Below are positions 415 through 43,445 of a stretch of 43,996 nucleotides of DNA, in pieces. The stretch lies in the IMG/VR virus record IMGVR_UViG_3300021127_000600, positions 1-43,996 of that record, one strand, 5' to 3'. The first letter of the stretch is position 1, and the number at the start of each line of letters is the position of its first letter. The notes under the pieces are model-generated. The model did no database searches. It was not told the DNA's origin and saw nothing but the letters and a program-made list of their open reading frames with translations. The position numbers and the translations under genes were made by a program. This DNA is from a virus.

Positions 415-442
415 TTGACTGCAAAATGTATTCAGTTATGCT
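415..442 (+). promoter_or_regulatory. Sigma70-type promoter for the topoisomerase operon
   Basis: TTGACT (415-420), 16-base spacer, TATGCT (437-442). The 10-mer ataattgact around the -35 box is repeated exactly at 4621-4630. Predicted transcription start is about 449, leaving a leader of roughly 26 bases before the ATG at 475. Confidence 0.6.
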
Positions 443-474
443 TATTCTTATACAACGCTATCACGGAATTTACA

Positions 475-2292
475 ATGGTTAAAAAAACAACAGACGAAAT
501 TGTTAAATTAAGCGATTACGCTCATCATCGTTTACGAACAGAAATGTATCTAGGCAGTCGTAATCTACATACACAAACTGTAATTAACTGGAAAAATAAT
601 CAATTAATAGCCGAAGAAATTTCTTGGACACCTGCAGTTTACTGTGCCTTACGAGAAATTTTTGACAATAGTTTGGATGAAGTTATAGGACACGGGCACG
701 GAAGCAAGATTGATGTTACATACGATCCAAAAACTCTTACCTTTAGTGTTGCTGACGATGGAAGAGGTATTCCCATCGATTGGGACGAAAATGAGCGCAT
801 GCATAAAGCGACCATTGCACTTACGCAGGCTCGTGCAGGGAGAAACTTCGGCGAACGACAGGAAGTTAGAGGTACCAATGGCATTGGCGCTTCTGTAGTA
901 GTAAGTTGTTCAAAAGAATTTTCAATTGATATCAAGAGAGATGGTAAAAGATTTCAACAGACTTTTAAAGAAGGGACAGATCTATTACCAGACTTAGATA
1001 TCAGCGAACCTAGAATTTTTAAAAGTTCTATGAAATCTGGAACTGAAACTGCTTTTACGCTTAGTTCTACTGTCTTTCCAAAAGCTCACTTGCCGATCGA
1101 TTTTGTATATGCAAGAGTTTACGAGGTAGCAGCTAACCATCCCAATATCAAATTTACATTTAATGGACAAAAAATCACTGTTGCAAAATCAGTTGATAAA
1201 ACATTTTTTTCTCAGAAGAAGCCCATTATTGTTTCAATCAATCAAGAAAAATTTGTTAGCAATTATTATCTAATACCTAATTTTGCAGACGAAGGAGAGT
1301 TTTTACACAGTACAGTAAACGACATTCCTGCATTTAATGGTGGTCAACATATTGATACTTTCAAGAGACTTTTTTTCAGCGGTATTTTAAAAGCTCTAGA
1401 ACGAGAAAGCTCTAAACGAGGTTTAACTCCTAATCGAAGCGATATTGCCGAAGGACTGTTAATTTACAATACCACGGTAATGCATGCTCCTAATTTTGAT
1501 AGCCAAAGCAAGACAAGGTTGATTAATGACGAAGTAGACAAATATATTAAGAATACACTTGAAAATGACATTACTTTCAAAGACATAATAAAGCATAATA
1601 AAGAATGGATAGACACAGTATATGCTAGATGTGCAGCACGTACTCAAAAGAAGGATGACGCTGACGTTGCCAAGGCCAACAGAAAACTACTTAGAAACAA
1701 AGTTCCTAAGTTATTAGATGCAACATCAAAAGAACGAACCAAATGCATCCTGTTAATTTGTGAAGGTGACTGTGTAGCAGAAGATACAGAAATCGCAATA
1801 TTCGAAGATGGAAAATTTAGTAGAAAAAAAATTAAAGACATCCAACTAGGTGATTTAGTTTTAACGCATAAAGGCAGAATTAAACCAGTATGTAATAAAC
1901 AGGCAAAAATAACAGATGGAATTACCATTACAACGTCATCTGGAAAAATATTAAAAATAAGTCTTGAGCATAAAATACCTGTTTATAACATACAACTAAA
2001 CCAATATGAAATTGTAAAAGGAAAAGATTTAGACAAGTCTAAACATAAACTGTTTTCCTCTATAATTAATATGGATTCTACATTTTTTGAGATCATTTCT
2101 GTTAATGATTTTGATGATAAAAAATTTAATAAATCAATTTCTTTTACAAATGGTGTAATTAATCAAACATGTATAACGTCCGAGAATCATTTATTCTCTG
2201 TTTTAAATATATGCACTGCTACTATTGAAAAGGTCGCTGCTAAAAATCTAGACATTGATATCCATTTATTAATGGCACATAATTTACAGTAA
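475..2292 (+). CDS. DNA topoisomerase II large subunit, N-terminal part fused to an N-intein
   Basis: Homolog of T4 gp39 (GyrB-like ATPase subunit). I start at ATG 475 because it follows the 415 promoter by a short leader and begins with the family-typical MVKKTTDEIVKLSD; upstream TTG at 415 is the -35 box itself. GHKL ATPase motifs are visible: REIFDNSLDE (Asn/Glu metal site), DDGRGIP, and GTNGIGAS. The extein runs to codon 1768-1770 and ends ...LLICEGD, the first half of the TOPRIM motif EGDSA. At 1771 an intein begins with Cys (CVAEDTEIAIFEDGK, block A) followed by a block B-like GKILKISLEHKIPVY. The frame then stops at 2290-2292, so this polypeptide (432 extein plus 173 intein residues) should be joined in trans to the product of 3635-4357. 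The N-intein is longer than the usual ~100 residues, carrying an extra tail. Confidence 0.93.
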   Translation: MVKKTTDEIVKLSDYAHHRLRTEMYLGSRNLHTQTVINWKNNQLIAEEISWTPAVYCALREIFDNSLDEVIGHGHGSKIDVTYDPKTLTFSVADDGRGIPIDWDENERMHKATIALTQARAGRNFGERQEVRGTNGIGASVVVSCSKEFSIDIKRDGKRFQQTFKEGTDLLPDLDISEPRIFKSSMKSGTETAFTLSSTVFPKAHLPIDFVYARVYEVAANHPNIKFTFNGQKITVAKSVDKTFFSQKKPIIVSINQEKFVSNYYLIPNFADEGEFLHSTVNDIPAFNGGQHIDTFKRLFFSGILKALERESSKRGLTPNRSDIAEGLLIYNTTVMHAPNFDSQSKTRLINDEVDKYIKNTLENDITFKDIIKHNKEWIDTVYARCAARTQKKDDADVAKANRKLLRNKVPKLLDATSKERTKCILLICEGDCVAEDTEIAIFEDGKFSRKKIKDIQLGDLVLTHKGRIKPVCNKQAKITDGITITTSSGKILKISLEHKIPVYNIQLNQYEIVKGKDLDKSKHKLFSSIINMDSTFFEIISVNDFDDKKFNKSISFTNGVINQTCITSENHLFSVLNICTATIEKVAAKNLDIDIHLLMAHNLQ

Positions 2293-2293
2293 G

Positions 2294-2337
2294 TATCGCC
2301 CTCTATGATAAATAAATATATCTTACAGAAGGTGATA
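2294..2337 (+). promoter_or_regulatory. Hairpin covering the endonuclease SD, late promoter in its loop
   Basis: TATCGCC (2294-2300) can pair with GGTGATA (2331-2337, one G-U), hiding the AAGGTG ribosome site of the gene starting at 2340. A GATAAATA octamer (2307-2314), like the T4 late promoter core, sits in the loop; RNA starting near 2320 would lack the 5' arm and expose the site. This mirrors the design at 34308-34360. Confidence 0.5.
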
Positions 2338-2339
2338 TC

Positions 2340-3638
2340 GTGCTAAAAGAATTTAAATGTGAAAAAACTGGTATTAAGTTTCGATCAAAAGATACAGACC
2401 ATGACAGAAGTTTTCGTTTGAGAGCAACCTTAACCAAAAACAAAATATCAATATTCAAATACCTTGAATTATGGAATATCGAACACAATAAATTGCGATG
2501 CGCATGGTGTGGCGATTATAACCACGATATATGTGGTATAGAACATACAGTCAATGATACCAATATTATTCCAACAGGTGTTCGTAGGCGACATACCGCA
2601 TTATACCTGTGTTTTTCAAAACATCAGTGCTTGGGAAAAAAACTCAACAAAAACAGTGTAGAATTTATCAGCAAAGCATATGGATTAAGCGAATCGGAGG
2701 CTTTAAAGAAAATACACACAAGAAACAGCAGCCCATTTTATAAAATTAATCATCAGTCAATAGAGGATTATAAGCTATCTCAAAGTAGATCACCTGACTG
2801 GTTTAAAAAAAATAAGAAAGATCGCCAGGAATGGATAAGGAAAGCCAATCATTCTAGAAGTTATCAAGGGTATGTAGAAAAAAACAGGGGAGATGAATGG
2901 AAAGACATACAAAAACGTAAAGCGATTACATTATCTGCCCTTATAGACAAATACGGTGTAGAAATTGGTACAGCAAAATATAATCAATGGAAAGAGAATA
3001 CTAATTTAAGTCTGGCAACATTTATCAAAAAATTTGGTAAGATACAGGGAACAACAAATTATCTTAAGGTGCATATCAACCATGTAGAAAATACAGATTC
3101 AAATGATTTGATTTCTGGTTTTATAAAAAAAGTTACCAACATTGTCCAGCGTAATCCGCTATATCAATATCATATGTATAATTTAGAAAAAGAATTGAGA
3201 TTTTATAAATTTTATGATGTTGCAAAAGAGTTTTTTGAGTTATCGCTTTACGATATCGAAGAATATATTGCAAAAATATTACCTAATTATAGGACAAATA
3301 AAAGGAAAATATTTCGCAATAATTATAGTTGTTATTCTTACACAGACTGCGGAACTATTTTGAAGAGTTTCTATGAAATTTGGATATACGATTACTTGTG
3401 TAAAATTGGCTTAAAGGAGACAGAAGATTTTGTCTTCAACCAGAGATATCCCAATAGTGAATTATTTTATGATATATGGTTTATTCATCAAAATATATAT
3501 GTTGAAATTGCCGGCGGTGATTCTCATACTTATAAAGAACATATGCTAAAAAAAGAACACTTATTTGGATCCATTATAATGGATCCAAATGATTATAAGA
3601 CTACAATATCTAATATATTAAGTAAGGCACAACAATGA
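2340..3638 (+). CDS. Free-standing homing endonuclease inside the split topoisomerase intein
   Basis: A 432-residue protein starting at GTG 2340 with an AGAAGGTG ribosome site. Near residues 56-66 it has CAWCGDYNHDIC, which resembles a zinc-knuckle or HNH-like cysteine pair, then a lysine/arginine-rich repeat region (IDKYGVEIGTAKYNQWKE and a relative, LIKKFGK-like) that is probably DNA-binding. The C-terminal third (SFYEIWIYDYLCKIG ... FYDIWF ... YVEIAGGD) has the spacing of a Vsr-like/PD-(D/E)XK nuclease core, the type described for endonucleases of fractured split-intein genes (I-Bth0305I/EDxHD group). Its stop overlaps the next start (ATGA). Role: homing of the intein cassette into endonuclease-free topoisomerase alleles. 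Position is the strongest evidence; the exact nuclease family is inferred. Confidence 0.75.
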   Translation: MLKEFKCEKTGIKFRSKDTDHDRSFRLRATLTKNKISIFKYLELWNIEHNKLRCAWCGDYNHDICGIEHTVNDTNIIPTGVRRRHTALYLCFSKHQCLGKKLNKNSVEFISKAYGLSESEALKKIHTRNSSPFYKINHQSIEDYKLSQSRSPDWFKKNKKDRQEWIRKANHSRSYQGYVEKNRGDEWKDIQKRKAITLSALIDKYGVEIGTAKYNQWKENTNLSLATFIKKFGKIQGTTNYLKVHINHVENTDSNDLISGFIKKVTNIVQRNPLYQYHMYNLEKELRFYKFYDVAKEFFELSLYDIEEYIAKILPNYRTNKRKIFRNNYSCYSYTDCGTILKSFYEIWIYDYLCKIGLKETEDFVFNQRYPNSELFYDIWFIHQNIYVEIAGGDSHTYKEHMLKKEHLFGSIIMDPNDYKTTISNILSKAQQ

Positions 3639-4357
3639 ATATAAATGAAAGTTTGTTTTTAATGGAAGAGATAATAGATATCTCTCCTATAGGAAAAACA
3701 AACATGTATGATATACAAGTTTTGGATGACGAAACATTTGTGTTATCAAACGGACTGCTCAGTCATAATAGCGCAAAAAGCATGGTAGCAGCTGTACGCA
3801 ATCCTGAAATACACGGAGCGTTGCCTCTCAGAGGTAAGATTATGAATGTTAGAGGCGAAGCAGCCAAAACTATTATTGAAAACCAAACTATAGCAGATAT
3901 TATGACAGCATTAGGCATTGGACTAGGACAAAAAGCTGTAAGATCTAATATGAGATACGGAAAAGTTTACTTGGCAGCAGATCAAGATCCTGACGGTGCT
4001 AATATTACTGCTTTATTGGTCAATTTTTTCTATCTACATTGGCCTGAGTTGTTTGATCCAAAACTGGCGCCAGTATTTTATGTGTTTCAAACTCCTTTTA
4101 TTATACAGGAAAAAGGCAAAAAACGTTTTTACTGGTATGCCGATGACTATAAAAATTATAATGCAGAAGATTGGAAAGGAGCTCCAAAGCCAACTAGAGC
4201 AAAAGGGTTAGGCAGTTTAGAAGAGGCAGATTGGACTCATAGTCTTTCTAATCCAAAACTTGTACCACTTTTAGATGATGGTAAATTATCTGAAGCACTG
4301 GATCTTATTTTTAATAGTTCCCGAGCAGACGATCGCAAAGCGTGGGTAGCCTTATAA
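3635..4357 (+). CDS. C-intein plus C-terminal part of topoisomerase II large subunit
   Basis: The first 45 codons are a C-intein: block F MYDIQVLDDETFVLSNG and block G LLSHN, ending at Asn 3767-3769. The C-extein starts with Ser at 3770 (SAKSMV), which completes the EGD|SA TOPRIM motif broken at 1770. The extein also has the second TOPRIM acid cluster DQDPDGAN and an AKGLGSLEEADW segment typical of T4 gp39-family C-termini. Spliced length would be 432 + 195 = 627 residues, suited to a fused gp39/gp60-type subunit. Without splicing the TOPRIM catalytic centre is divided between two polypeptides, so activity should depend on trans-splicing. Confidence 0.92.
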   Translation: MNINESLFLMEEIIDISPIGKTNMYDIQVLDDETFVLSNGLLSHNSAKSMVAAVRNPEIHGALPLRGKIMNVRGEAAKTIIENQTIADIMTALGIGLGQKAVRSNMRYGKVYLAADQDPDGANITALLVNFFYLHWPELFDPKLAPVFYVFQTPFIIQEKGKKRFYWYADDYKNYNAEDWKGAPKPTRAKGLGSLEEADWTHSLSNPKLVPLLDDGKLSEALDLIFNSSRADDRKAWVAL

Positions 4358-16748: not shown

Positions 16749-17956
16749 AAATATCCACTATTCTGCTAGGTTGTGCATTGTGTCTGAGTACTACCGCTGC
16801 GTATTATAGTATTGCAGGTCTAGCAGCAATTTTTGCAAGCAGCTTTTGGCCTGTTGTTGCCATGGCTACCATTTTAGAAATATCAAAATTAGTTGTTGCT
16901 AGTTGGTTGTATCAAAAATGGAATATTATTCCGCCATTGTTAAAAATTTACTTAACTACGGCGGTAGTTGTGCTAATGATAATAACAAGTTTAGGTATTT
17001 TTGGATTTTTAACACGAGCGCATGTGGAAGCTGGACTTGCCAACACTGAGCTTTCTTTGAAATTAGAACAAATCACCGGACAAATTGATCAGCACAAGAC
17101 TGCTATAACTAGATATCAAACGCAATTATCCCAACTTGATAAATCCATTAACATTCAACTTGATGCCAATAGAGCGACACAAGCGCTAGCATCTAGAAAA
17201 TCACAAGAATCAGAACGTAATGATATCAAGACAAAATTAGAGATAGAGTCAAAGACCATACAAGATCTTACGGATCAACAGTTGAAAATTAAGCAAGATA
17301 TTTCAATTGTTGAAACCAAAATTGGTCCAATTAAATATATTGCCGAATTCTTTGCAAATGGTTCTAATGTTGATACTGATCAAGCGGTGCGATATGTGAT
17401 CATTGTATTAGTATTGGTATTCGATCCGTTAGCAGTTTTAATGTTAATTGCTGCAAACATAAGCATAAAAAATGAAACTAGCAGAGTTGACACGGTAGAA
17501 TCTAAACCTAGGCAAGAAACTGTGAAAGACACACAAAATGAACCTGTGTTAGGGCAAACTATGGTAATTGGACACTCCGGCCAAACAGTTTGGTGGACGG
17601 GCCAGGCGTGGGAACTGATACCTTCTCAGATGGATACTTCACATATAGCAACAAATGATGTTGTTGACGCTAACGTAATTAAGGAGATTGTCACAGACAG
17701 TTTGGACAAATGGTTGGCTAAAACTCTTAGCGAACCAACTTCGCAAAACGAGCCTAAACCGACAACTATTTCAACAGACATTTCAATTGACAAACCAACT
17801 GCAGACACACATACAGTAGTTGATAACACAGCAGAAGTTAATAACACACAAGAGCCGGTTAACGATGCAGTTACACAAACCGCATCAACAACTGACACGT
17901 ATCATGTTCTTGACCACTTCAAGCCAACACATATCAATTACAGCAGTAGGAAATGA
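16745..17956 (+). CDS. Coiled-coil membrane protein with four membrane segments
   Basis: A 403-residue protein, TTG start overlapping the previous stop (TTGA). Three membrane helices at about 5-31, 34-55 and 66-90 are followed by a long coiled coil (about 95-205, rich in Gln, Lys, Glu: [15 protein letters not shown] ...), a fourth helix at about 217-240, and a soluble Thr/Asp-rich tail. The layout recalls DUF4407-type membrane proteins, but I cannot confirm it. It overlaps clpX by ATGA, so it is translated with the proteostasis genes. A membrane anchor or sensor for that set is a guess. Confidence 0.65.
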
Positions 17957-19194
17957 CAAACAAAAATTATCATAATTGCAGTTTTTGTGACAAAAGTCAA
18001 AAACAAGTTAAAAAACTAATCGCAGGTAATGATGTATATATTTGCGATGAGTGTGTAATCTTATGCTTCGATATTCTTAAGCAAGATCATATCCCACCTA
18101 CAACAGAAATATCATTGATTCCCACTATAATCAAAGATAAACTTGACGATTATGTTATAGGGCAAGATAACGCCAAAAGAATTTTGGCCGTAGCCGTTTA
18201 TAATCATATGAAGCGTATTGGGAATCCGGTAATAGATGGCATAGAAATAGATAAAAGTAATATGCTGTTGATCGGCGGCTCAGGCACTGGCAAAACCTAT
18301 ACAATACAAAATATTGCCAAAATATTAGATGTACCGATGACAATAGTCGATGCAACTTCTTTGACAGAAAGCGGATATGTAGGGCTTGATGTAGAGGATG
18401 CAATTATAAAACTATATCATGCCGCAGATAACGATGTTGCGAAAACAGAACGAGGCATTGTGTACATTGACGAAATTGACAAAAAAGGTCGTAAAGGTGA
18501 AAATACTTCTATTACCAGAGACGTTAGCGGCGAAGGAGTTCAACAAGCACTTCTTAAAATGATCGAAGGTTGCGAAGTAAAAATACCTCCACAGGGAGGA
18601 AGAAAAAATCCAAATAGCGAATTTGTAACAATTAATACAAAGAACATTCTTTTTATTGTTGGCGGAGCCTTCGAAGGTTTGGATAAAATTATTGAACAGA
18701 GACAATCGGTTGATTCGATTGCTATTGGTTTTAACGCTCAAATCAAACAAGTTGACACAGTACGCAGTCATTACAATCTTATCAAGCAAGTCAGAAGTGA
18801 AGATTTAATTAAGTTTGGTATAATACCTGAGCTAATTGGTAGGTTACCTATTGTGGTGCCATTTGAAGATTTAGATGAAGAGGCCTTAATCAAAATCCTA
18901 ACTAAGCCAAAAAATGCTATCATTAAACAGTTTCAAAAAATGTTTGAAATGGATAAAATTCAGCTGGAATTTACTAAAGATAGCTTGAAAACAATCGCAA
19001 ATGAGGCTATAACTAGAAAAACTGGAGCTAGAGGGCTCAGAAGTATTATAGAAAACATTTTACTCTCTACACAGTTTGAGCTACCATTATTGCATAAAAC
19101 AGGAGTCAAAAAAGTATGCATAACCAAGGAAACAGTAGAAAACATGTCCGAACCTCTTAAGTTATATGATACAGAACAGGATGTTGTAAATTGA
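17953..19194 (+). CDS. clpX: ClpX, ATP-dependent unfoldase of ClpP
   Basis: A 413-residue ClpX of full length. The N-terminal zinc-binding domain has CSFC (C9, C12) and CDEC (C31, C34). AAA+ motifs: Walker A GGSGTGKT (108-115), pore loop GYVG (141-144), Walker B YIDEID (171-176), sensor and arginine-finger segment LIGRLPIVV, and C-terminal [11 protein letters not shown]. The IGF loop needed to dock on ClpP is usually between Walker B and the sensor; here GIGF-like sequence appears as SIAIGFNAQ. It therefore can probably work with host ClpP to redirect proteolysis. No clpP gene is visible in the window. Confidence 0.95.
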
Positions 19195-19772
19195 ACGAAG
19201 TTTATTCTAGAGGAAATAATAGACAACGTCCTCGTCCAGAAGATCCAATTAAGGCTAATCTGGTTTACAATGAACGCATCCGCCATGACTCAGTTCGATT
19301 AGTTGGTAAAGACGACGAGCAGTTAGGTGTAATGCCATTTAAACAGGCACTATGGCAAGCTAGAAACGAAGGGCTTGATATAGTGGAAGTTACAGCTAAT
19401 GCTACGCCACCTGTATGCAAACTTACTGAATTAAACAAATATATCTACAACCTCAGGCGTCAAAAGAAAGAAAAAGACAAAAAAATTCGAGAAAATGCAA
19501 TTGTTATCAAAGAGATACATTTGCGGCCAGTGACTGACAAGCACGACATTGAAGTCAAGCAATCTCATGCGAGAAAGTTTCTTGATGACAATGCCAAAGT
19601 TAAGATCATGATTAAATTTAAAGGCAGAGAACTCAGCTTTAGAGAAAAAGGTTTTGAACTCATGCAAAACTTTATTACCGGTCTGGAACCGTGTAAAATT
19701 GAAAAAAGTCCTGAATTAAACGGCAAAGCAATTATTTCTATTATTGCTCCTGCAAACGAAAAACGTAATTGA
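19191..19772 (+). CDS. infC: Translation initiation factor IF-3
   Basis: A 193-residue protein with a TTG start overlapping the clpX stop (TTGA). It has both IF-3 domains: N-terminal [20 protein letters not shown] and [15 protein letters not shown] with PPVCKL, the Lys/Arg-rich linker helix ([12 protein letters not shown]), and the C-terminal [18 protein letters not shown] ... [14 protein letters not shown]. Cellular IF-3 is ~180 residues, so this is complete. It binds the 30S subunit, checks start codons and prevents 70S association. In a phage next to bS21 it is expected to bias initiation toward phage mRNAs. A non-AUG start recalls host infC autocontrol, though TTG is common in this phage. 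Confidence 0.93.
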
Positions 19773-32513: not shown

Positions 32514-32524
32514 TAAAAATCAAA

Positions 32525-33393: not shown

Positions 33394-34296
33394 ATGAGCT
33401 CATTTTCCTGTCCAGTAGTTCGAGTTTCAGAAGTCATTGAGCATCCGAATGCTGATCGTCTTTCAATTGTAAAACTCGAAGGATTGGGTTTTACATGCAT
33501 TTCTGGAAAACTTGAGGATGGCTCTCCGCGCTACAAGGCAGGAGATTTTGTTGTTTACATTCCTAGTGCTGCATTGTTGCCAGAATGGCTGCTCAAGGCG
33601 ATGGATTTCTGGGATGATATCAACAACAAAGGCACGCTGGCGGGCAGTGATGGCAACCGCGTGAAACCTCTGAAGCTGCGCGGAATTTTTTCTGAAGGTG
33701 TTTTGTTTCCTGTTGAATGGGATAACAACCTTGCTAATCTAGGCAGCGGCAGCGTGGTTTCAACACCAAGTGAAACACCCGGTATTAACAGCTTGTGGCA
33801 GGTAGAGCTTGGTCAAGATGTGGCAGAGTTGCTTGGTATTACGAAATATTCTCCTCCCATCCCAGTGGGCATGTCTGGAGAAGTTGCCAACATGTTTGGC
33901 CACACTGTGAAGTTCGATTTTGATCGTTGGGAGCAGAACACTGAATTGTTTGATCCAGGTGAACCAGTTGTTGCAACAGAAAAGTTGCATGGTTGCGCAG
34001 ATTATAATACGATAGTAGAAACTCTAGAATTTGGTCCGATTAAGATTGGAGATTTGATTACCCAGAAGCCTGCTGTATGCTATGTTAAATCGTATGACAT
34101 AGCATCGAACGAACTCGTCTATGAACGTGTAGAAGGATACAGCGTCCAACCCAATAATGACGATTGGTATGAGATCGAAGTTGAAGATGGCCGTGTTATC
34201 AAATTGACAGGAAATCATCCAGTCTGGCTTCCTAAATTGAATTGCTACCGTCAGGTAAGTGATCTTATCGGAGACGAAATAGTTTTGATTGATTGA
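33394..34296 (+). CDS. RNA ligase N-terminal part fused to an N-intein
   Basis: Ribosome site AAAGGA. The first ~100 residues are an N-terminal OB-fold (VVRVSEVIEHPNADRLSIVKL, CISGKLED, YKAGDFVVYIP), which with the later ligase motifs resembles Rnl5-type RNA ligases such as that of Naegleria. The nucleotidyltransferase motif I, TEKLHG (K-x-x-G with the lysine that carries AMP), ends the 200-residue extein at 33993. At 33994 an intein starts with Cys (CADYNTIVETLEFGPIKIGD), with block B VIKLTGNHPVWL (T-x-N-H). It stops at 34294-34296, giving a 100-residue N-intein. Trans-splicing with 35226-35945 would restore EKLHG|SF. Confidence 0.9.
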   Translation: MSSFSCPVVRVSEVIEHPNADRLSIVKLEGLGFTCISGKLEDGSPRYKAGDFVVYIPSAALLPEWLLKAMDFWDDINNKGTLAGSDGNRVKPLKLRGIFSEGVLFPVEWDNNLANLGSGSVVSTPSETPGINSLWQVELGQDVAELLGITKYSPPIPVGMSGEVANMFGHTVKFDFDRWEQNTELFDPGEPVVATEKLHGCADYNTIVETLEFGPIKIGDLITQKPAVCYVKSYDIASNELVYERVEGYSVQPNNDDWYEIEVEDGRVIKLTGNHPVWLPKLNCYRQVSDLIGDEIVLID

Positions 34297-34307
34297 CGGA
34301 AAAATTG

Positions 34308-34360
34308 CATATGTATCTTCTCAGTGCATAAATAAAAATGCAACAAGGAGAATACATATG
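34308..34360 (+). promoter_or_regulatory. Hairpin sequestering SD and start codon, late promoter in the loop
   Basis: CATATGTAT (34308-34316) pairs with the sequence ending in the ATG at 34358-34360 (34352-34360), and TCTC (34319-34322) pairs with GAGA (34348-34351), leaving a 2-base bulge. The 13-bp stem buries both the AAGGAG ribosome site and the start codon. CATAAATA (34327-34334), a late-type octamer, lies in the 25-base loop; RNA starting near 34340 would lack the 5' arm and be translatable. Confidence 0.7.
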
Positions 34361-35284
34361 CAGAAAGAATGCCAATATTGCCATAAACTGGTAGAAATTA
34401 AAAACCCAGATCCTTCGAGAGGATCGTTACATAATCATATTGCTAGATGTAAATCTTACAAGACATATATAGATGATCTATTGTCAAAGGATCTACTCGA
34501 ACGAGAATATGTTCTATTACGAAAATCGGCATATGAGATGTCTATTGATCTTGGTATAGGAGTATCTCCTATTCTACGAAAGCTAATAGATTATGGGATA
34601 CCAACACGAAGTATTTCAGAATCTAAAAAAGAACCAAGATGCAAAGAACGAGCTGCAAAAACAAACCTAGAACGGCACGGTGCCGAACATAACTTTAGTC
34701 GAAATCATCCAAGCAGAATTATATGGCAGAAGAGATTGTTTGACAATGAAGGAATAAACAATGTCTTTCAACGACAGTCTGTAATTGATAAAATTGCTGA
34801 GTCGATTGCATCTAATCCAGAATCTAGGAAAGCGAGATACGGCAGTAGAATATCAGGTCCACATAAAAAAGTTTATAACTATATTAGGGAACTTGGTATT
34901 GATAATGTTGTAATGGAATACGGAATGTCTATAGGAACCAAAAAGAAATATTTTGATTTATACATTCCGTCCTATAATCTAATAATTGAAGTAAATGGTA
35001 ATCTATGGCACGCTAATCCAGAAATATATAAACCGAATGATTTGATACGATATTTTCAACAAAATATAACTGTACCAGCGCATGAAGTCTGGAAAAACGA
35101 TTATGAGAAGATAAAAATCGCTTTACAAGCCAATTATAATGTGTTAATAGTATGGGAGAAAGATATCAACCAACGGTGGAACGATATCAAATCTAAGATT
35201 GATACTATAGTCAAAGGGAATGATAATGCGTCAGCTACGACTCAAATCTGTGAAGAAAGTATCCAATACCTCCAACAGGTATGA
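34358..35284 (+). CDS. Homing endonuclease inside the split RNA ligase intein
   Basis: A 308-residue protein; start ATG 34358 has AAGGAG and the controlled hairpin. The N-terminus MQKECQYCHKLVEI plus HNHIARC looks like a zinc finger (C-x2-C ... H-x3-H-x3-C). A middle segment with paired basic helices (AKTNLERHGAEHNFS, FQRQSVIDKIAESI) is of the kind found before Vsr-type domains in homing enzymes. The C-terminus carries the nuclease core: KKKYFDLYIPSYNLIIEVNG (D and E of a PD-(D/E)XK-like/Vsr centre), LWHANPEIY, VLIVWEKDINQRW. It overlaps the C-half gene by 59 bases in another frame. The role is homing of the cassette. Confidence 0.82.
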   Translation: MQKECQYCHKLVEIKNPDPSRGSLHNHIARCKSYKTYIDDLLSKDLLEREYVLLRKSAYEMSIDLGIGVSPILRKLIDYGIPTRSISESKKEPRCKERAAKTNLERHGAEHNFSRNHPSRIIWQKRLFDNEGINNVFQRQSVIDKIAESIASNPESRKARYGSRISGPHKKVYNYIRELGIDNVVMEYGMSIGTKKKYFDLYIPSYNLIIEVNGNLWHANPEIYKPNDLIRYFQQNITVPAHEVWKNDYEKIKIALQANYNVLIVWEKDINQRWNDIKSKIDTIVKGNDNASATTQICEESIQYLQQV

Positions 35285-35945
35285 TATTCAAGTTCGAGGA
35301 ACCCACAATTTTTTTGCTGATGGCATGCTGGTACACAATTCCTTCTGCGCCATTGTGGTCGAACCTGGTCTGAGCCATCCTGAGATGTTTGGCAGCCATG
35401 GTGAGTTCCTGGTCCACAGCAAAGGTCTCGGAGCACAGGGCTTGGCCTTCAAGAACAACGATGCCAACACCGGAAACCTCTATGTTCGCACGCTGAAGTC
35501 GCTGCTGGATGCCGGACTGGAAGATCGTCTCAAGGCGTCCTTTGACTTCAACGCTGTCAAGAACATCGCTTTGATCGGTGAAGTTTTTGGACGAGGAGTT
35601 CAAGATCTGCACTACGGACTTGACAAGCCAGGGTTCCGAGTGTTTGACATCCGAGTACACCATGTGTTCGGTGAGACATATCTTGCTCAATCCAGGGTTG
35701 CAGAACTACTGGCCAAGCTTGAGATCGACATGGTGCCCACGGTCTACGAAGGTCCGTTTGACATTGCTGCCCTAGAGGCAGTACGAGACGGCCGGACCAT
35801 GCTGGGTGGTACCAACATCCGAGAGGGGATTGTGGTGCGCAGTGCAACCGAAGCACGCCATGAGATACACGGTCGCAAAATCTGCAAGATGATTTCGCCC
35901 GATTATCTTACTCGCAAGAGCAAAGACGCAACGGAGTACACCTGA
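35226..35945 (+). CDS. C-intein plus C-terminal part of RNA ligase
   Basis: I start at ATG 35226, 7 bases after AAAGGGA. Residues 1-38 are a C-intein (NRYDIQVRGTHNFFADGMLVHN, with block F D-x-x-x-x-x-x-H-N-F and terminal HN). The extein begins with Ser at 35340 (SFCAIVVEPG). Ligase motifs III FRVFDIRV, IV REGIVVR and V ICKMIS are present, and the end is DYLTRKSKDATEYT. Extein total would be 401 residues. This half is G+C rich: 34 of 60 bases from 35401, far above the surrounding DNA and above the intein and endonuclease. That fits a recently acquired gene. A copy of its last codons reappears at 36424. Confidence 0.9.
   Translation: MRQLRLKSVKKVSNTSNRYDIQVRGTHNFFADGMLVHNSFCAIVVEPGLSHPEMFGSHGEFLVHSKGLGAQGLAFKNNDANTGNLYVRTLKSLLDAGLEDRLKASFDFNAVKNIALIGEVFGRGVQDLHYGLDKPGFRVFDIRVHHVFGETYLAQSRVAELLAKLEIDMVPTVYEGPFDIAALEAVRDGRTMLGGTNIREGIVVRSATEARHEIHGRKICKMISPDYLTRKSKDATEYT
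35913..35938 (+). repeat. 26-base direct repeat, copy 1 (end of RNA ligase)
   Basis: Identical to 36435-36460; both copies read K-S-K-D-A-T-E-Y in frame with the ligase ending. They flank the nucleotidyltransferase gene. Confidence 0.9.
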
Positions 35946-35973: not shown

Positions 35974-36414
35974 ATGAGAATATTTGAAATCATAACTGAA
36001 TCCGGCAATCCATATGACCCAACCAGTCCTAATGGAAAATGGTGGATACAACAGGCTGAGAAAGTTGCACGTCTCCCAACTTATCAAAAAGAGCTTTTGG
36101 ACAAAGAAAGTGCATTTTTTGACAAAGTAGCCAAAACGATCTTGGATATTGTTCCTGATGCTGTTGAGATATGGCTGCACGGCAGCCGAGCAGTTGGAGA
36201 ACACAAACGAACAAGTGATTGGGATTTTGTTGTGTTTCTCCCTGCAATGACGCCAGAGAGAAATATTCAACTTCACTCAAGGGGGAGTGGCGGACTTGGG
36301 GACATTGAGAGGATTGCTGGTAGAAAGGTCGATGTGCAAGGTGATGCAATAACAGATAATAGTCATTTCTGCCGCACAGTTCGGAATGAAGGTATCCTTA
36401 TCTGGAAAGTCTAA
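35974..36414 (+). CDS. Nucleotidyltransferase-fold protein with capsid-targeting-like N-terminus
   Basis: A 146-residue protein. IWLHGSRAVGEHKRTSDWDFVVF (about residues 68-90) is a complete MNT motif: GS-R-A, then D-x-D in SDWDF. A later acid (KVDVQGD) may be the third metal ligand. The first 9 residues, MRIFEIITE|SG, resemble the T4 capsid-targeting sequences that gp21 cuts after (L/I)-x-E, so it may be packaged and injected. AATAAATA 4 bases before the ATG is a late-type octamer. MNT proteins modify proteins, RNAs or small molecules by AMP transfer; the target is unknown. Confidence 0.68.
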   Translation: MRIFEIITESGNPYDPTSPNGKWWIQQAEKVARLPTYQKELLDKESAFFDKVAKTILDIVPDAVEIWLHGSRAVGEHKRTSDWDFVVFLPAMTPERNIQLHSRGSGGLGDIERIAGRKVDVQGDAITDNSHFCRTVRNEGILIWKV

Positions 36415-36423
36415 TCTGTCTTG

Positions 36424-36468
36424 ACTACCTGATCCGCAAGAGCAAAGACGCAACGGAGTATCAGTAAT
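36424..36468 (+). pseudogene. Displaced copy of the RNA ligase 3' end
   Basis: Codons read DYLIRKSKDATEYQ then TAA, against DYLTRKSKDATEYT at the end of the ligase gene. No start codon or ribosome site, so it is a remnant. It suggests that a segment holding the nucleotidyltransferase gene was inserted at the ligase 3' end and brought a replacement tail. Confidence 0.75.
36435..36460 (+). repeat. 26-base direct repeat, copy 2
   Basis: Same 26 bases as 35913-35938, 522 bases downstream. Confidence 0.9.
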
Positions 36469-39491: not shown

Positions 39492-39674
39492 TTATAATGT
39501 ACTGCTTTCTGTATAACCGGCCTTACTCGTATAACAACAGGCAAATATTCTAAACATTTCTGTCAATGTAAAGTGTGCATGGTTGACATACACACTTTCT
39601 TGTTTTTTAAATACACATGCACACAGGGATAGACCCAAAAGTGCTAAAACACATAGCCGGATAGGAGTTATCAA
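39492..39674 (-). CDS. Possible small lipoprotein
   Basis: A 60-residue frame with TTG start at 39674, MITPIRLCVLALLGLSLCAC, a good signal with lipobox LCAC. The rest (FKKQESVYVNHAHFTLTEM) is not recognised. It shares start-codon bases with nadM on the other strand and has no ribosome site, and it crosses the nadM promoter. The signal may be chance. Confidence 0.3.
   Translation of the reverse strand: MITPIRLCVLALLGLSLCACVFKKQESVYVNHAHFTLTEMFRIFACCYTSKAGYTESSTL
39570..39611 (+). promoter_or_regulatory. nadM promoter with inverted-repeat operator
   Basis: TTGACA (39583-39588) with TTTAAA (39606-39611) at 17 bases. AAAGTGTG and CACACTTT, perfect inverted halves around 13 bases, straddle the -35 box at about 39570-39598. 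This has the size of a dimeric repressor site. Confidence 0.5.
39625..39669 (+). promoter_or_regulatory. NAD-salvage leader element, copy 1 (nadM)
   Basis: AGGGATAGACCCA (39625-39637), a GGG/CCC mini-hairpin, followed after 20 bases by GATA-GGAGT-TATC, with the nadM ribosome site in the loop. Same sequence and order as before nadV. Confidence 0.6.
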
Positions 39675-40717
39675 TGGCGCACCAATATGATATTGCCGTA
39701 TTCATCGGCAGATTTCAGCCAATTCACGAAGGTCACCTCAAGGTGATCCTTACAGCCCTAGAAAATGCCAAGCAACTTGTGATCCTTGTAGGAAGCTCTG
39801 GTGCTCCTAGATCATATAGAGATCCATGGACGTTTAACGAACGCTACCAAATGATCTACACAAGTATCCCAGGCCATTTAAGAGATCGCGTTCGTATTAA
39901 ATCTCTTGAAAATGCAGCCTATAATGACAGTAAGTGGATTCATAGTGTTCAAAGTCATGTGACTCGAGCAGCTTGGGAATTTGGCTATCTCAAAGATCCT
40001 AAAATTGCTCTAATCGGACACAGCAAAGACAATTCTAGCTATTATCTTAAACTGTTTCCGCAATGGGCTAGTATTGAAGTTCCAAATCATGCTGGGTTCA
40101 ACAGCACTGATATTCGTAACGCTTATTTCGTTCCAGACTTCGTACAATTACCCGATGCCTTCAACACAGTCATGCCAGACGGCGTGACAAAGTTCCTAAT
40201 CTCTTTTGCTAGCAGCTCAGATTATGCTTACATTCTCAATGAGTATGAACACATTAAGCTCTATAAAAAATCATGGGAATCTGCACCATATCCGCCTATT
40301 TTTGTTACTGTTGACGCAGTTGTAGTACAAAGCGGACATGTGTTGCTTGTACGCAGACGGGCAGCACCGGGCAAGGGGCTATGGGCTATGCCAGGAGGTT
40401 TTGTCAATCAAGACGAGCGTATACGCGATGCAGTAATACGCGAACTGCGCGAGGAGACTGGCATTAAGGTACCTGATCCGGTGCTGCGTGGTTCAATTAT
40501 TGCACAGGACGTGTTTGACGACCCTAATCGCTCGGCTCGGGGACGTACTATCACGCATGCTTTCTTGGTCAAGCTAAAAGATGACACTGCGCTGCCAAAG
40601 GTCAAAGGTCAGGACGACGCTGACAAAGCTCGCTGGGTGCCAATTGCTGATCTCAAGCGTGAAAACTTCTTCGAAGATCACTTTGACATAATTCAGAACA
40701 TGATTGGAAGAATTTAA
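39674..40717 (+). CDS. Bifunctional NMN adenylyltransferase / Nudix hydrolase (NadM-Nudix)
   Basis: A 347-residue two-domain enzyme. The N-terminal nucleotidyltransferase has [11 protein letters not shown] with the catalytic H18-x-x-H21 and the later STDIR; it makes NAD+ from NMN and ATP. The C-terminal Nudix domain (about residues 208-347) has [23 protein letters not shown], a full Nudix box that typically removes ADP-ribose. This architecture is known as NatV in vibriophage KVP40 and in cyanobacteria. With NadV it forms the NAD+ salvage pathway that can refill NAD+ drained by host defence. Start is ATG with AGGAG in the leader hairpin. Confidence 0.94.
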
Positions 40718-40720
40718 ATC

Positions 40721-40912
40721 ATGGCAACTATTATTGGCAAGGAACCTAGAGAAATTAGACGTTGTAGTTGTCGCAACTGTGCCAGCATAATCGAGTATAC
40801 CTTGAGCGAGACTACTACACGTTGGGTATCAGATTATAGCGGTGATAGAGAAACCATTCGTGAATTGCGGTGTCCAGGCTGTGGCAACAACGTAGAAGTC
40901 AAATATTATTGA
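40721..40912 (+). CDS. Small zinc-ribbon protein between the NAD genes
   Basis: A 63-residue protein 4 bases after nadM. RRCSCRNC (C-x-C-x2-C) and LRCPGCGNN (C-x2-C) form a zinc ribbon, with a TRWVSDYSGDRET strand pair between. No known enzyme family. In-operon placement hints at a link with NAD metabolism, but not more. Confidence 0.65.
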   Translation: MATIIGKEPREIRRCSCRNCASIIEYTLSETTTRWVSDYSGDRETIRELRCPGCGNNVEVKYY

Positions 40913-40926
40913 AAAGGGTAAACATT

Positions 40927-41007
40927 ATGTGGAATGATATCAAGCGTATTGACGATGCTGAACAAAATGTTGCCAAGTTCGTCTTCAACAAATCGGAATT
41001 TCGTTGA
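40927..41007 (+). CDS. 26-residue peptide
   Basis: MWNDIKRIDDAEQNVAKFV-type helix ending at TGA inside the nadV -35 box, with AAAAGGG upstream as ribosome site. May be a genuine micro-protein or leader; not recognised. Confidence 0.4.
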   Translation: MWNDIKRIDDAEQNVAKFVFNKSEFR

Positions 41008-41032
41008 CAGCTCAAAGATTTTTTGCTATAAA
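41004..41032 (+). promoter_or_regulatory. Strong promoter of nadV
   Basis: TTGACA (41004-41009), exactly 17 bases, TATAAA (41027-41032), which is also TATAAATA (41027-41034). Start near 41039, leaving a leader of about 50 bases. Confidence 0.7.
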
Positions 41033-41043
41033 TAGGCATTGGA

Positions 41044-41088
41044 AGGGATAGACCCAGCCAACTACATAACTAACAAGGGAGTCTTGTT
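41044..41088 (+). promoter_or_regulatory. NAD-salvage leader element, copy 2 (nadV)
   Basis: AGGGATAGACCCA (41044-41056), then TAACAAG-GGAGT-CTTGTTA, a 7-bp stem with the ribosome site GGAGT in the loop and the ATG just outside. The loop is the same as in copy 1 while the stem sequences differ. Confidence 0.65.
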
Positions 41089-42501
41089 ATGACAAACAAT
41101 ATTTTATCCAACATTCTGTTGGATGTTGATTCTTACAAATCGTGCCACGCATTTTGCTATCCGCCAGGTACTGAATACGTTTTCAGCTATATTGAAAGCC
41201 GCGGTGGTCGTTTCGATCAAACCGTGATGTTTGGTCTACAAATGTTTCTTAAGCGCTACATGAGCATGCCTATTACCCAGGAGATGGTGGATGAGGCAGC
41301 AGAATTTTGGGCTGCACATGGTGAACCCTTCTATCGGGAAGGATGGGATTACATTGTTAACAAACATAACGGAAAATTACCAGTAATTATCAAAGCCGTT
41401 CCGGAAGGTACCGTTGTTCCTACACACAATGTATTTCTTACTATTGAAAACACAGATCCAAATTGTTTTTGGCTTACAAGTTTTCTTGAAACTGCTCTGC
41501 TGCGTGCCGTTTGGTATCCAACTACTGTTGCCACAGTTAGCTGGCATGCCAAGCAAATCATTCGCGCAGCTCTTGAGATAAGCAGCGAAGACGCTGAAGG
41601 ACAAATTAATTTCAAGCTGCATGATTTTGGTGCTAGAGGAGTCAGCTCAAAAGAAAGTGCAGGAATCGGAGGTGCAGCGCATCTTGTCAATTTCATGGGG
41701 TCTGATACTGTTACCGGTGTGCTATATGCTAATAAGTTTTACGGTGCATCTATGGCAGGCTTCTCTATTCCTGCTGCAGAACATAGCACAATTACAAGTT
41801 GGGGTCGTAGCAGAGAAGCTGATGCGTATGCAAACATGATTAAAACATTTGGTAAACCTGGTTCACTTGTAGCGGTTGTAAGTGATAGCTACGATATCAT
41901 GAATGCAGCCCGTGAAATTTGGGGTAAAGACCTAAAACAACTTGTAACAGAGAGTGGTACAACACTTGTTGTTCGTCCAGATTCAGGCGATCCGCTGGTT
42001 GTTCCAATTGATGTTATTGAAGCGTTAGGAGAACGTTTTGGCTACACTGTGAACTCAAAGGGCTATAAGGTACTACCTAGCTCTGTGCGTGTCATCCAAG
42101 GTGACGGCATCACAATTGAGAGTTTACCACAAATTCTCTCTAATTTGCTAGATCGCGGATGGAGTGCAGATAACATTGCGTTTGGCATGGGCGGCGGCCT
42201 GCTGCAAATGGTCAACCGCGATACTTTGAAATTTGCTATGAAATGTTCAGCTGCCAAAGTCGACGGCAACTGGATTGACGTGTATAAAGATCCTATTACC
42301 GATCCTGGTAAGAAGAGCAAACGAGGTAAAGTTACGCTATACAAAAGTGGCAGCGAATACGAAACTGCGGTAAATCGTCCTACCCGTTGGACAGATCGCG
42401 GGATTGGCTGGCAAGACGCACTTGACACAGTATGGTGTGATGGTAATTTAATCAAGGAAACTACCTTTGAACAAGTCAGAGGACTTGCCAACAGTAGGTG
42501 A
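41089..42501 (+). CDS. nadV: Nicotinamide phosphoribosyltransferase (NadV)
   Basis: A 470-residue NAMPT-family enzyme of full length. LLDVDSYKSCHAFCYP at the start, KLHDFGARGVSSKESAGIGGAAHLVNFMGSDT, and AAEHSTITSWGR with catalytic His232 are all family markers, as are VVRPDSGDPL and GMGGGLLQMVNRDT. It converts nicotinamide and PRPP to NMN, which NadM turns into NAD+. NadV with NadM is the NARP2-type pathway described for phages that restore NAD+ against depletion defences. PRPP comes from host or phage Prs. Confidence 0.96.
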   Translation: MTNNILSNILLDVDSYKSCHAFCYPPGTEYVFSYIESRGGRFDQTVMFGLQMFLKRYMSMPITQEMVDEAAEFWAAHGEPFYREGWDYIVNKHNGKLPVIIKAVPEGTVVPTHNVFLTIENTDPNCFWLTSFLETALLRAVWYPTTVATVSWHAKQIIRAALEISSEDAEGQINFKLHDFGARGVSSKESAGIGGAAHLVNFMGSDTVTGVLYANKFYGASMAGFSIPAAEHSTITSWGRSREADAYANMIKTFGKPGSLVAVVSDSYDIMNAAREIWGKDLKQLVTESGTTLVVRPDSGDPLVVPIDVIEALGERFGYTVNSKGYKVLPSSVRVIQGDGITIESLPQILSNLLDRGWSADNIAFGMGGGLLQMVNRDTLKFAMKCSAAKVDGNWIDVYKDPITDPGKKSKRGKVTLYKSGSEYETAVNRPTRWTDRGIGWQDALDTVWCDGNLIKETTFEQVRGLANSR

Positions 42502-42691
42502 TGCTAAAATCTCGGGCAGGACTTTTACATTCAAAGCTCCTGCTCGAGATGATGTTTATTACTGGTGTTGTTATAATCTTCCAGGAGAACACTGGCTGGC
42601 TACACCTGGCTCAAACAATACTATCATTTTTAGAATATTTGATGATTGTGCTTGGATCAAATTTTGGATGAAATGGGGTGCTGAATCATAA
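42467..42691 (+). CDS. Small hypothetical protein overlapping the nadV end
   Basis: A 74-residue protein starting at TTG 42467 with AAGGAA 8 bases before it, and overlapping nadV by 35 bases. Aromatic and beta-rich (DDVYYWCCYNLPGEHWL, FWMKWG). Another member of the style of small Trp/Tyr-rich proteins seen in this phage. Function unknown. Confidence 0.5.
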   Translation: MNKSEDLPTVGDAKISGRTFTFKAPARDDVYYWCCYNLPGEHWLATPGSNNTIIFRIFDDCAWIKFWMKWGAES

Positions 42692-42696
42692 TTCCT

Positions 42697-42725
42697 TAGA
42701 CAATTTCTTAGCTTTCATATATAAT
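42697..42725 (+). promoter_or_regulatory. Promoter abutting the sirtuin start
   Basis: TAGACA (42697-42702), 17 bases, perfect TATAAT (42720-42725), then 6 bases to ATG 42732. The transcript should begin at the start codon. Confidence 0.6.
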
Positions 42726-42731
42726 AAAAAC

Positions 42732-43445
42732 ATGAAAAATCTAATTATCCTTTCAGGTGCAGGGTTAAGTGCCGACAGCAGTGTTCCTACTTTTCGTTCT
42801 CAAAACGGATTGTGGATGAATCACGATATTAATGTAGTTTGTAATTATTCTACGTGGAAAGATAACTTTGATCAAGTACACACATTTTATAATAATCTTC
42901 GTACACTGCTAACAACGGTTGAACCAAATCCGGCTCATTATCTTATAGCCGAATGGGAAAAACGTTACGGCGAACGAGTAATTTCTTTAACAGCAAATGT
43001 TGACGATCTTCTAGAGAGGGCTGGCTGTCAAAATACTTTGCATTTACATGGTTTTTTGCCTAACATGCAATGCACAGCTTGTGGTAATATATGGAACGTT
43101 GCCTATAAAGCATGGGATTGTGTTAATGATAGATGTCCTAAATGCAATAGTCGACGAGGTGTAAAACCCGGTGTGGTTTTTTTCAACGAAGGTGCCAAAG
43201 AGTACATTCGCCTTAATAAGGTATTCCGCGAACTCGCGCCCGCTGACACAGTTCTGGTAATTGGAACCAGTGGTCAGGTAATTAATGCAGATGCTTTATT
43301 ATTTGATAAAACCTGTTACAAAATTTTGAATAATCTCAATCAAGAACAATTTGTAGACGATACGCTATACGATTTTGTTCATTACGGTCGTGCTGCAGAA
43401 TCAGTTGGTATATTGGATAAAAAAATCAAAGAAAAAATGGAATAA
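42732..43445 (+). CDS. Sirtuin (Sir2-type NAD+-dependent deacylase)
   Basis: A 237-residue class III/U-type sirtuin. NAD+-binding GAGLSADSSVPTFR (residues 9-22), TANVDDL with Asn89/Asp91, catalytic His in HLHG (H106), zinc cysteines C114, C117, C135 and C138, and VIGTSGQV are all visible. It removes acyl groups from lysine with NAD+, giving nicotinamide, the substrate of NadV. In a phage it could alter host protein acylation, or consume NAD+ as a signal. I choose ATG 42732 because its promoter ends 6 bases before. It lacks the long helical regions of defence Sir2 proteins, so it looks like a deacylase rather than an NADase effector. Confidence 0.93.
   Translation: MKNLIILSGAGLSADSSVPTFRSQNGLWMNHDINVVCNYSTWKDNFDQVHTFYNNLRTLLTTVEPNPAHYLIAEWEKRYGERVISLTANVDDLLERAGCQNTLHLHGFLPNMQCTACGNIWNVAYKAWDCVNDRCPKCNSRRGVKPGVVFFNEGAKEYIRLNKVFRELAPADTVLVIGTSGQVINADALLFDKTCYKILNNLNQEQFVDDTLYDFVHYGRAAESVGILDKKIKEKME

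What the first reader, a model, noticed from the sequence alone, without database searches (positions are those of the whole stretch)
33394..35945. RNA ligase fractured by a second split intein at motif I (EKLHG|SF)
Same architecture, different gene, different intein and endonuclease. The cut lies directly after the AMP-accepting K-x-x-G motif. Two independent fractured genes in one 44-kb stretch suggest a phage lineage rich in this kind of mobile element, and possible conditional control of nucleic-acid enzymes by trans-splicing.
Basis: partly seen in the sequence, partly recalled or inferred. Interest (0 to 1): 0.82.

Follow-up and report, generated by a model that had tools for sequence, protein, structure and literature searches.

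The report
Phage RNA ligase fractured by split intein
A phage RNA-repair enzyme is encoded in two separate halves that carry the matching ends of a self-splicing protein element, with a DNA-cutting enzyme gene wedged between them; this is a new case of a known selfish arrangement, and related elements sit in the same active-site motif of several kinds of ligase.

Summary
Confirmed. At 33394-35945 an Rnl5/DRB0094-type RNA ligase is split into two ORFs. The break lies directly after motif I (E-K197-L-H-G200). ORF 1 ends in a 100-aa IntN (Cys1, TGNH). ORF 3 starts with a 38-aa IntC (…HNFFADGMLVHN|S). Between them is an independent 308-aa gene whose predicted fold matches Vsr and the EDxHD homing endonuclease I-Bth0305I. 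Joining the exteins restores a full-length ligase (TIGR02306 177 bits, cut-off 151). It aligns gap-free at the junction with intein-free orthologues (best L121, 63%, EKLHG|TFCAIV). The joined intein matches NrdJ-1. This is the 'fractured gene' arrangement of Dassa et al. 2009, in an RNA ligase. In other phages the same split-intein family sits at motif I of Rnl5, T4-Rnl1-type and ATP DNA ligases, always split in the copies found. Endonuclease states: intact, on the opposite strand, or decayed to a C-terminal tail. Among Rnl5 ligases the occupied genes are scattered on the tree while their inteins cluster by site, the signature of homing. A frameshift artefact is very unlikely. Splicing, cleavage and ligation are inferred, not shown; nothing found supports 'conditional control'. 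New member of a known kind; the cross-family motif-I hotspot is the interesting part.

The parts
33394..33993 (+). N-extein: Rnl5/DRB0094-type RNA ligase residues 1-200 (PHA02142 OB domain + start of nucleotidyltransferase domain)
   Evidence: TIGR02306 E 2.2e-26, PF21189 E 2.2e-6; alignment to intein-free orthologues without a gap at the junction
33979..33993 (+). Motif I E-K-L-H-G; K197 is the predicted AMP-accepting lysine
   Evidence: invariant T-E-K-x-H-G in the Rnl5 alignment
33994..34293 (+). IntN, 100 aa: Cys1, TGNH (block B), ends ...LIGDEIVLID
   Evidence: TIGR01445 31.1 bits, cut-off 24.5; conserved end point in relatives
34294..34296 (+). Stop codon (TGA) of the first half
34345..34350 (+). 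AAGGAG Shine-Dalgarno-like site, 7 nt before the endonuclease ATG
   Evidence: sequence
34358..35284 (+). Free-standing homing endonuclease gene, 308 aa: N-terminal C-x2-C...H (zinc-finger-like) region, helical middle, C-terminal EDxHD/Vsr-like nuclease (E178, D200, H218, D248)
   Evidence: AlphaFold2 model pLDDT 87; Foldseek 1cw0 and 3r3p prob 1.00; profile vs 3r3p E 2e-6
34856..35182 (+). Nuclease domain (residues about 167-275)
35213..35219 (+). AAAGGGA ribosome-binding-like site 6 nt before ATG 35226, inside the endonuclease 3' end (possible translational coupling)
   Evidence: sequence
35226..35339 (+). IntC, 38 aa: MRQLRLKSVKKVSNTSNRYDIQVRGTHNFFADGMLVHN (upstream in-frame ATG at 35220 also possible)
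   Evidence: TIGR01443 29.3 bits, cut-off 15.6; NrdJ-1-like
35340..35945 (+). C-extein: ligase residues 201-401 (+1 Ser; motifs GEVFG, FDIRV, REGIVV, ICKMIS) and stop
   Evidence: TIGR02306 E 1.8e-22, PF09414 E 1.5e-17

Best explanation
This is a fractured gene: a phage Rnl5-type RNA ligase invaded at motif I by a split-intein mobile element. Shown from sequence: the two halves, intact splicing residues, an independent EDxHD-type endonuclease gene, intein-free orthologues, and relatives at the same site. Inferred: the two halves are translated separately, IntN and IntC associate, and class-1 trans-splicing (Cys1 thioester, transfer to Ser+1, Asn cyclisation) joins ...EKLHG to SFCAIV... Only the joined protein brings K197 together with motifs III-V in one ligase. 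The endonuclease cuts intein-free ligase genes at the motif-I codons in co-infecting phages, and recombination copies the IntN-endonuclease-IntC block into the break. Insertion inside an essential, conserved motif makes imprecise loss harmful to the ligase, so the element persists.
For: Domain matches for both halves, both intein ends and the joins. Endonuclease fold: Vsr 1cw0 and I-Bth0305I 3r3p as top matches with probability 1.00, TM to target 0.58 and 0.71. Clean empty sites, best L121 EKLHG|TFCAIVYEPGLNHAEMFG. Same site split again in L007, L016, L040; also in T4-Rnl1-type ligases and one ATP DNA ligase. Mobility: window ligase in a 100/100 clade with four intein-free ligases; occupied genes need 5 label changes, at least 4 forced by well-supported branches, while the inteins sort by site (4 changes, minimum 3). 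Endonuclease tails only in L007, L009 and L016, and an endonuclease fragment in L021. dN/dS 0.06-0.2 for IntN and endonuclease in relatives.
Against: No splicing, cleavage or ligase assay. The exact locus was not found in a second assembly: the only near-identical long contig, G001, is 100% identical to the start of the tested stretch but ends at window position 32516, before the ligase. Foldseek E-values for the endonuclease are modest (3e-3), as expected for a remote relative. The clade of Rnl5 motif-I inteins itself is weakly supported (57/32).
Confidence: 0.9

Rival explanations
1. A contiguous intein with an internal endonuclease, broken in the assembly by two frameshift errors (or read through by programmed frameshifting).
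For: The three ORFs lie in three frames and overlap slightly: the endonuclease frame is open from 34289, and IntC starts inside its end.
Against: The break point and the IntC start are at the same place in independent lineages. The endonuclease start matches that of L040. In L012 and L035 the endonuclease lies on the opposite strand. In L007, L009, L016 and L021 only an endonuclease remnant remains yet the halves are still separate ORFs. All motif-I copies found are split.
Confidence: 0.03
2. The element is decayed: the halves no longer splice and the ligase is lost.
For: Splicing was not tested; endonuclease decay is seen in relatives.
Against: In the window all splicing residues (Cys1, TGNH, VHN, Ser+1) and the ligase motifs are intact, with no internal stops. 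Relatives show purifying selection on IntN and endonuclease.
Confidence: 0.05
3. The split is kept as a control: trans-splicing makes ligase activity depend on an infection stage or stress signal.
For: Neither half alone carries the complete active site; a second replication-related gene in the window is also fractured.
Against: Close ligases do without the element; endonuclease decay and occurrence in several ligase families fit a selfish element; no regulatory signal was found.
Confidence: 0.06
4. The halves work as non-covalent subunits without splicing.
For: Two-part enzymes exist in phages (general knowledge; no tool result here).
Against: Complete class-1 splicing residues and conserved intein ends would be unnecessary; K197 lies only three residues before the break.
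Confidence: 0.01

Closest known systems
Fractured genes with split inteins and Vsr-like homing endonucleases (Dassa et al. 2009, doi 10.1093/nar/gkp095; gp41-1, NrdJ-1, IMPDH-1 inteins). Paper not held here; its details rest on own knowledge and on citing papers
   Same: Gene in two ORFs with IntN and IntC at the break; separate endonuclease ORF between; Vsr/EDxHD-like nuclease; joined intein closest in the PDB to NrdJ-1
   Different: Host gene is an RNA ligase and the site is motif I; no published RNA-ligase case was found in the held library
AceL NrdHF fractured gene (PMC7891396)
   Same: Phage-like metagenomic contig; 98-aa IntN and 48-aa IntC; endonuclease gene between the halves
   Different: Class 3 intein with a GIY-YIG endonuclease in a ribonucleotide reductase; here class 1 with EDxHD
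Pseudomonas phage MIJ3 split DNA polymerase B (PMC6892783)
   Same: Split intein with an endonuclease gene between two halves of a phage enzyme
   Different: HNH endonuclease, different gene and site
I-Bth0305I (EDxHD, PDB 3r3p) and Vsr (1cw0)
   Same: Nuclease fold and catalytic positions
   Different: I-Bth0305I is intron-encoded and Vsr is a mismatch-repair enzyme; this one has its own N-terminal DNA-binding part
Rnl5/DRB0094-type RNA ligases (TIGR02306), e.g. Caulobacter phage CcrColossus
   Same: Full-length match after joining
   Different: CcrColossus and the other annotated phage homologues examined are contiguous and intein-free

Membership tests
Fractured gene (Dassa type) | Host gene in two ORFs, each fused to one half of the same intein | tested here: met
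Fractured gene (Dassa type) | Free-standing homing endonuclease ORF between the halves | tested here: met
   34358-35284 with its own start and ribosome-binding-like site
Fractured gene (Dassa type) | Endonuclease of the Vsr-like/EDxHD type | tested here: met
   Foldseek top hits 1cw0 and 3r3p; profile E 2e-6 to 3r3p
Fractured gene (Dassa type) | Trans-splicing of the two products | not testable with these tools
   residues intact; assay needed
Class 1 intein | Cys1, block B TxxH, C-terminal His-Asn, +1 Cys/Ser/Thr | tested here: met
   C201, TGNH, VHN|S
Mobile (homing) intein | Intein-free alleles at the exact site and patchy distribution on the host-gene tree | tested here: met
EDxHD homing endonuclease | Catalytic E, D, H, D positions | tested here: met
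   E178, D200, H218, D248 invariant among eight homologues; aligned to 3r3p and 1cw0
EDxHD homing endonuclease | Cleavage of the intein-free target | not testable with these tools
   needs biochemistry
Rnl5/DRB0094 RNA ligase (TIGR02306) | Joined protein above the curated cut-off | tested here: met
   177.4 vs 151.15 bits
Rnl5/DRB0094 RNA ligase (TIGR02306) | RNA ligase activity | not testable with these tools
   needs assay of the spliced product

The most novel reading that the evidence does not exclude
Motif I of the covalent nucleotidyltransferase superfamily is a shared homing target. Split inteins with EDxHD endonucleases recognise the few codons around K-x-x-G-S and have jumped between non-orthologous phage ligases (Rnl5, T4-Rnl1 type, ATP DNA ligase), always in split form. 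Evidence: related inteins at the same position in all three (Rnl5 and Rnl1 IntN regions 37-64% identical to the window's); DNA identity between Rnl5 and Rnl1 sites peaks at 0.49-0.69 over positions -18 to +5 against about 0.18-0.42 around it. The alternative is that separate events converged on the same conserved motif.
Probability: 0.5. Interest if true: 0.6.

Novelty: new member of a known kind. Interest (0 to 1): 0.48.

Why it matters
It adds RNA ligases (and one DNA ligase) to the genes that split inteins fracture, and places the break three residues after the catalytic lysine. One family shows several stages side by side: intact endonuclease, inverted endonuclease, tail remnant. It supplies new candidate split inteins resembling NrdJ-1. 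The cross-family motif-I pattern makes a question testable: can a homing endonuclease move an intein between non-orthologous genes through a shared active-site motif?

Tried and rejected
Frameshift or assembly artefact: rejected on conserved break points, an inverted endonuclease and remnant endonucleases. Contiguous intein at the same site: none found in viral contigs or genome contigs, although contiguous inteins in other genes (L038, L039) were picked up by the same scan. Same element in isolated phages: none in INPHARED nor in plasmids; apparent overlaps (Tunturi_5, CcrColossus) are contiguous intein-free ligases. Second copy of the exact locus: 36-bp exact scan gave none, and contig G001 ends just before it. 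AlphaFold with 8 endonuclease sequences was poor (pLDDT 64.5); 24 sequences gave 87.2. Pfam and NCBIfam gave only weak Vsr hits, so the fold was used. Composition: ligase halves are GC-richer (GC3 0.41 and 0.59) than most window genes tested (mostly 0.24-0.40), suggesting a recent import, but identity to relatives along the gene showed no clear conversion tract.

Full report
Observation. The window holds three consecutive ORFs in three frames at 33394-35945. The first encodes ligase residues 1-200, ending VATEKLHG, followed by a 100-aa intein N half and a stop. The second (34358-35284) encodes a 308-aa protein with its own AAGGAG site. The third begins with a 38-aa intein C half at 35226, inside the end of the second ORF, and continues as ligase residues 201-401. 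Both ligase halves match TIGR02306 over profile positions 8-171 and 180-341, and both intein ends pass NCBIfam cut-offs. The extein join scores 177.4 bits against a cut-off of 151.15, and the joined intein's best PDB match is NrdJ-1.

The endonuclease. Pfam and NCBIfam give only weak Vsr hits. A 24-sequence alignment gave a good model (pLDDT 87.2). Its top PDB matches are Vsr (1cw0) and the EDxHD homing endonuclease I-Bth0305I (3r3p), both with probability 1.00. A profile search gives 3r3p at E 2e-6. E178, D200, H218 and D248 are invariant among eight homologues and fall at the catalytic positions of those enzymes as far as the alignments reach. The N terminus has a C-x2-C...H pattern that matches zinc fingers weakly.

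Relatives. Intein-free orthologues are common; 52 of 68 distinct empty sites have Thr after K-x-H-G, 8 Ser, 5 Cys. The nearest, L121, reads EKLHG|TFCAIVYEPGLNHAEMFG against EKLHG|SFCAIVVEPGLSHPEMFG in the window. The occupied Rnl5 ligases at K-x-H-G (window, L007, L016, L040) all have Ser, and L041 (K-F-E-G) has Cys, so the +1 residue may have come with the element. L040, from an uncultured-bacterium assembly, has the same ligase, site and endonuclease. L007 and L016 keep only the last part of the endonuclease gene. T4-Rnl1-type ligases are split at the same motif in L009, L011, L012, L021, L022, L030, L032, L035, L046, L064 and L074 (family model matched directly for L009, L011, L012 and L046; the others by sequence likeness to them; L055 probably), and an ATP DNA ligase in L047. 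In L012 and L035 the endonuclease lies on the opposite strand. A second Rnl5 site upstream of motif I (TDEER|CQNL) is used in L028, L031, L071, L075 and L108. No contiguous intein was found at motif I.

Mobility. On a 68-ligase tree the window gene lies with four intein-free genes (100/100). Occupancy needs five changes, at least four forced by well-supported branches, no better than shuffled labels. The inteins, in contrast, sort by host gene and site (four changes against a minimum of three and a shuffled mean of ten). Related inteins in unrelated branches of the host gene are the mark of homing. dN/dS of 0.06-0.2 in related elements shows both parts are under selection. In L012/L035 the endonuclease (80% identical) is more alike than the ligase N half (69%).

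Cross-family site. DNA identity between Rnl5 and Rnl1 junctions rises to 0.49-0.69 over positions -18 to +5 and is about 0.18-0.42 elsewhere. The motif-I codons themselves could therefore serve as a common target. Convergence on the same motif is the alternative.

How it works. Most likely the two halves are made separately, trans-splice, and only then form a ligase with a complete active site; the endonuclease spreads the block to intein-free ligases. The arrangement, the empty sites and the patchy distribution are shown; splicing, cleavage and ligation are inferred. A regulatory role is possible but nothing found supports it.

Known or new. The arrangement is that of Dassa et al. 2009 (not held; cited in PMC7090010, PMC6892783 and PMC7891396). 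Comparable published cases are AceL NrdHF and MIJ3 PolB. No RNA-ligase case was found in the held library, which does not cover all literature. Filed as a new member of a known kind.

Noticed in passing
window 415-4357: Second fractured gene: T4-like topoisomerase II large subunit split at CEGD|C...HN|SAKS with a different, unclassified endonuclease ORF (2340-3638). The endonuclease gene is 100% identical in three other IMG/VR contigs (L204-L206), and the same site is occupied in uncultured phage LR756500.1 (L202).
   Followed up: partly
L202 2770-5492 (LR756500.1): The topoisomerase subunit next to the fractured large subunit is also fractured, with an endonuclease of the family found here between its halves.
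   Followed up: partly
window 36423-36465: A 14-codon remnant of the ligase 3' end (DYLIRKSKDATEYQ*), 87% identical over 38 bp to the ligase tail, lies just after a Polbeta-type nucleotidyltransferase ORF (35974-36414). A similar ligase-tail duplicate follows the ligase in L124.
   Followed up: partly
window 33394-33993 and 35340-35942: Ligase halves have GC3 of 0.41 and 0.59 while many other window genes tested and the endonuclease are near 0.26 (range 0.24-0.40), suggesting the ligase gene is a recent import.
   Followed up: partly
L047 3168-5630: An ATP-dependent DNA ligase is split at motif I (KFNG|S) by a related split intein with the same endonuclease family.
   Followed up: partly
L028, L031, L071, L075, L108: A second split-intein site in Rnl5-type ligases, just upstream of motif I (KTDEER|CQNL).
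   Followed up: partly
window 39674-43445: NMNAT-Nudix-like, NAMPT-like and SIR2-like genes in a row, which look like NAD salvage functions (by sequence reading only).
   Followed up: no
window 17953-19772: ClpX-like gene followed by a translation initiation factor IF-3-like ORF, unusual for a phage (by sequence reading only).
   Followed up: no
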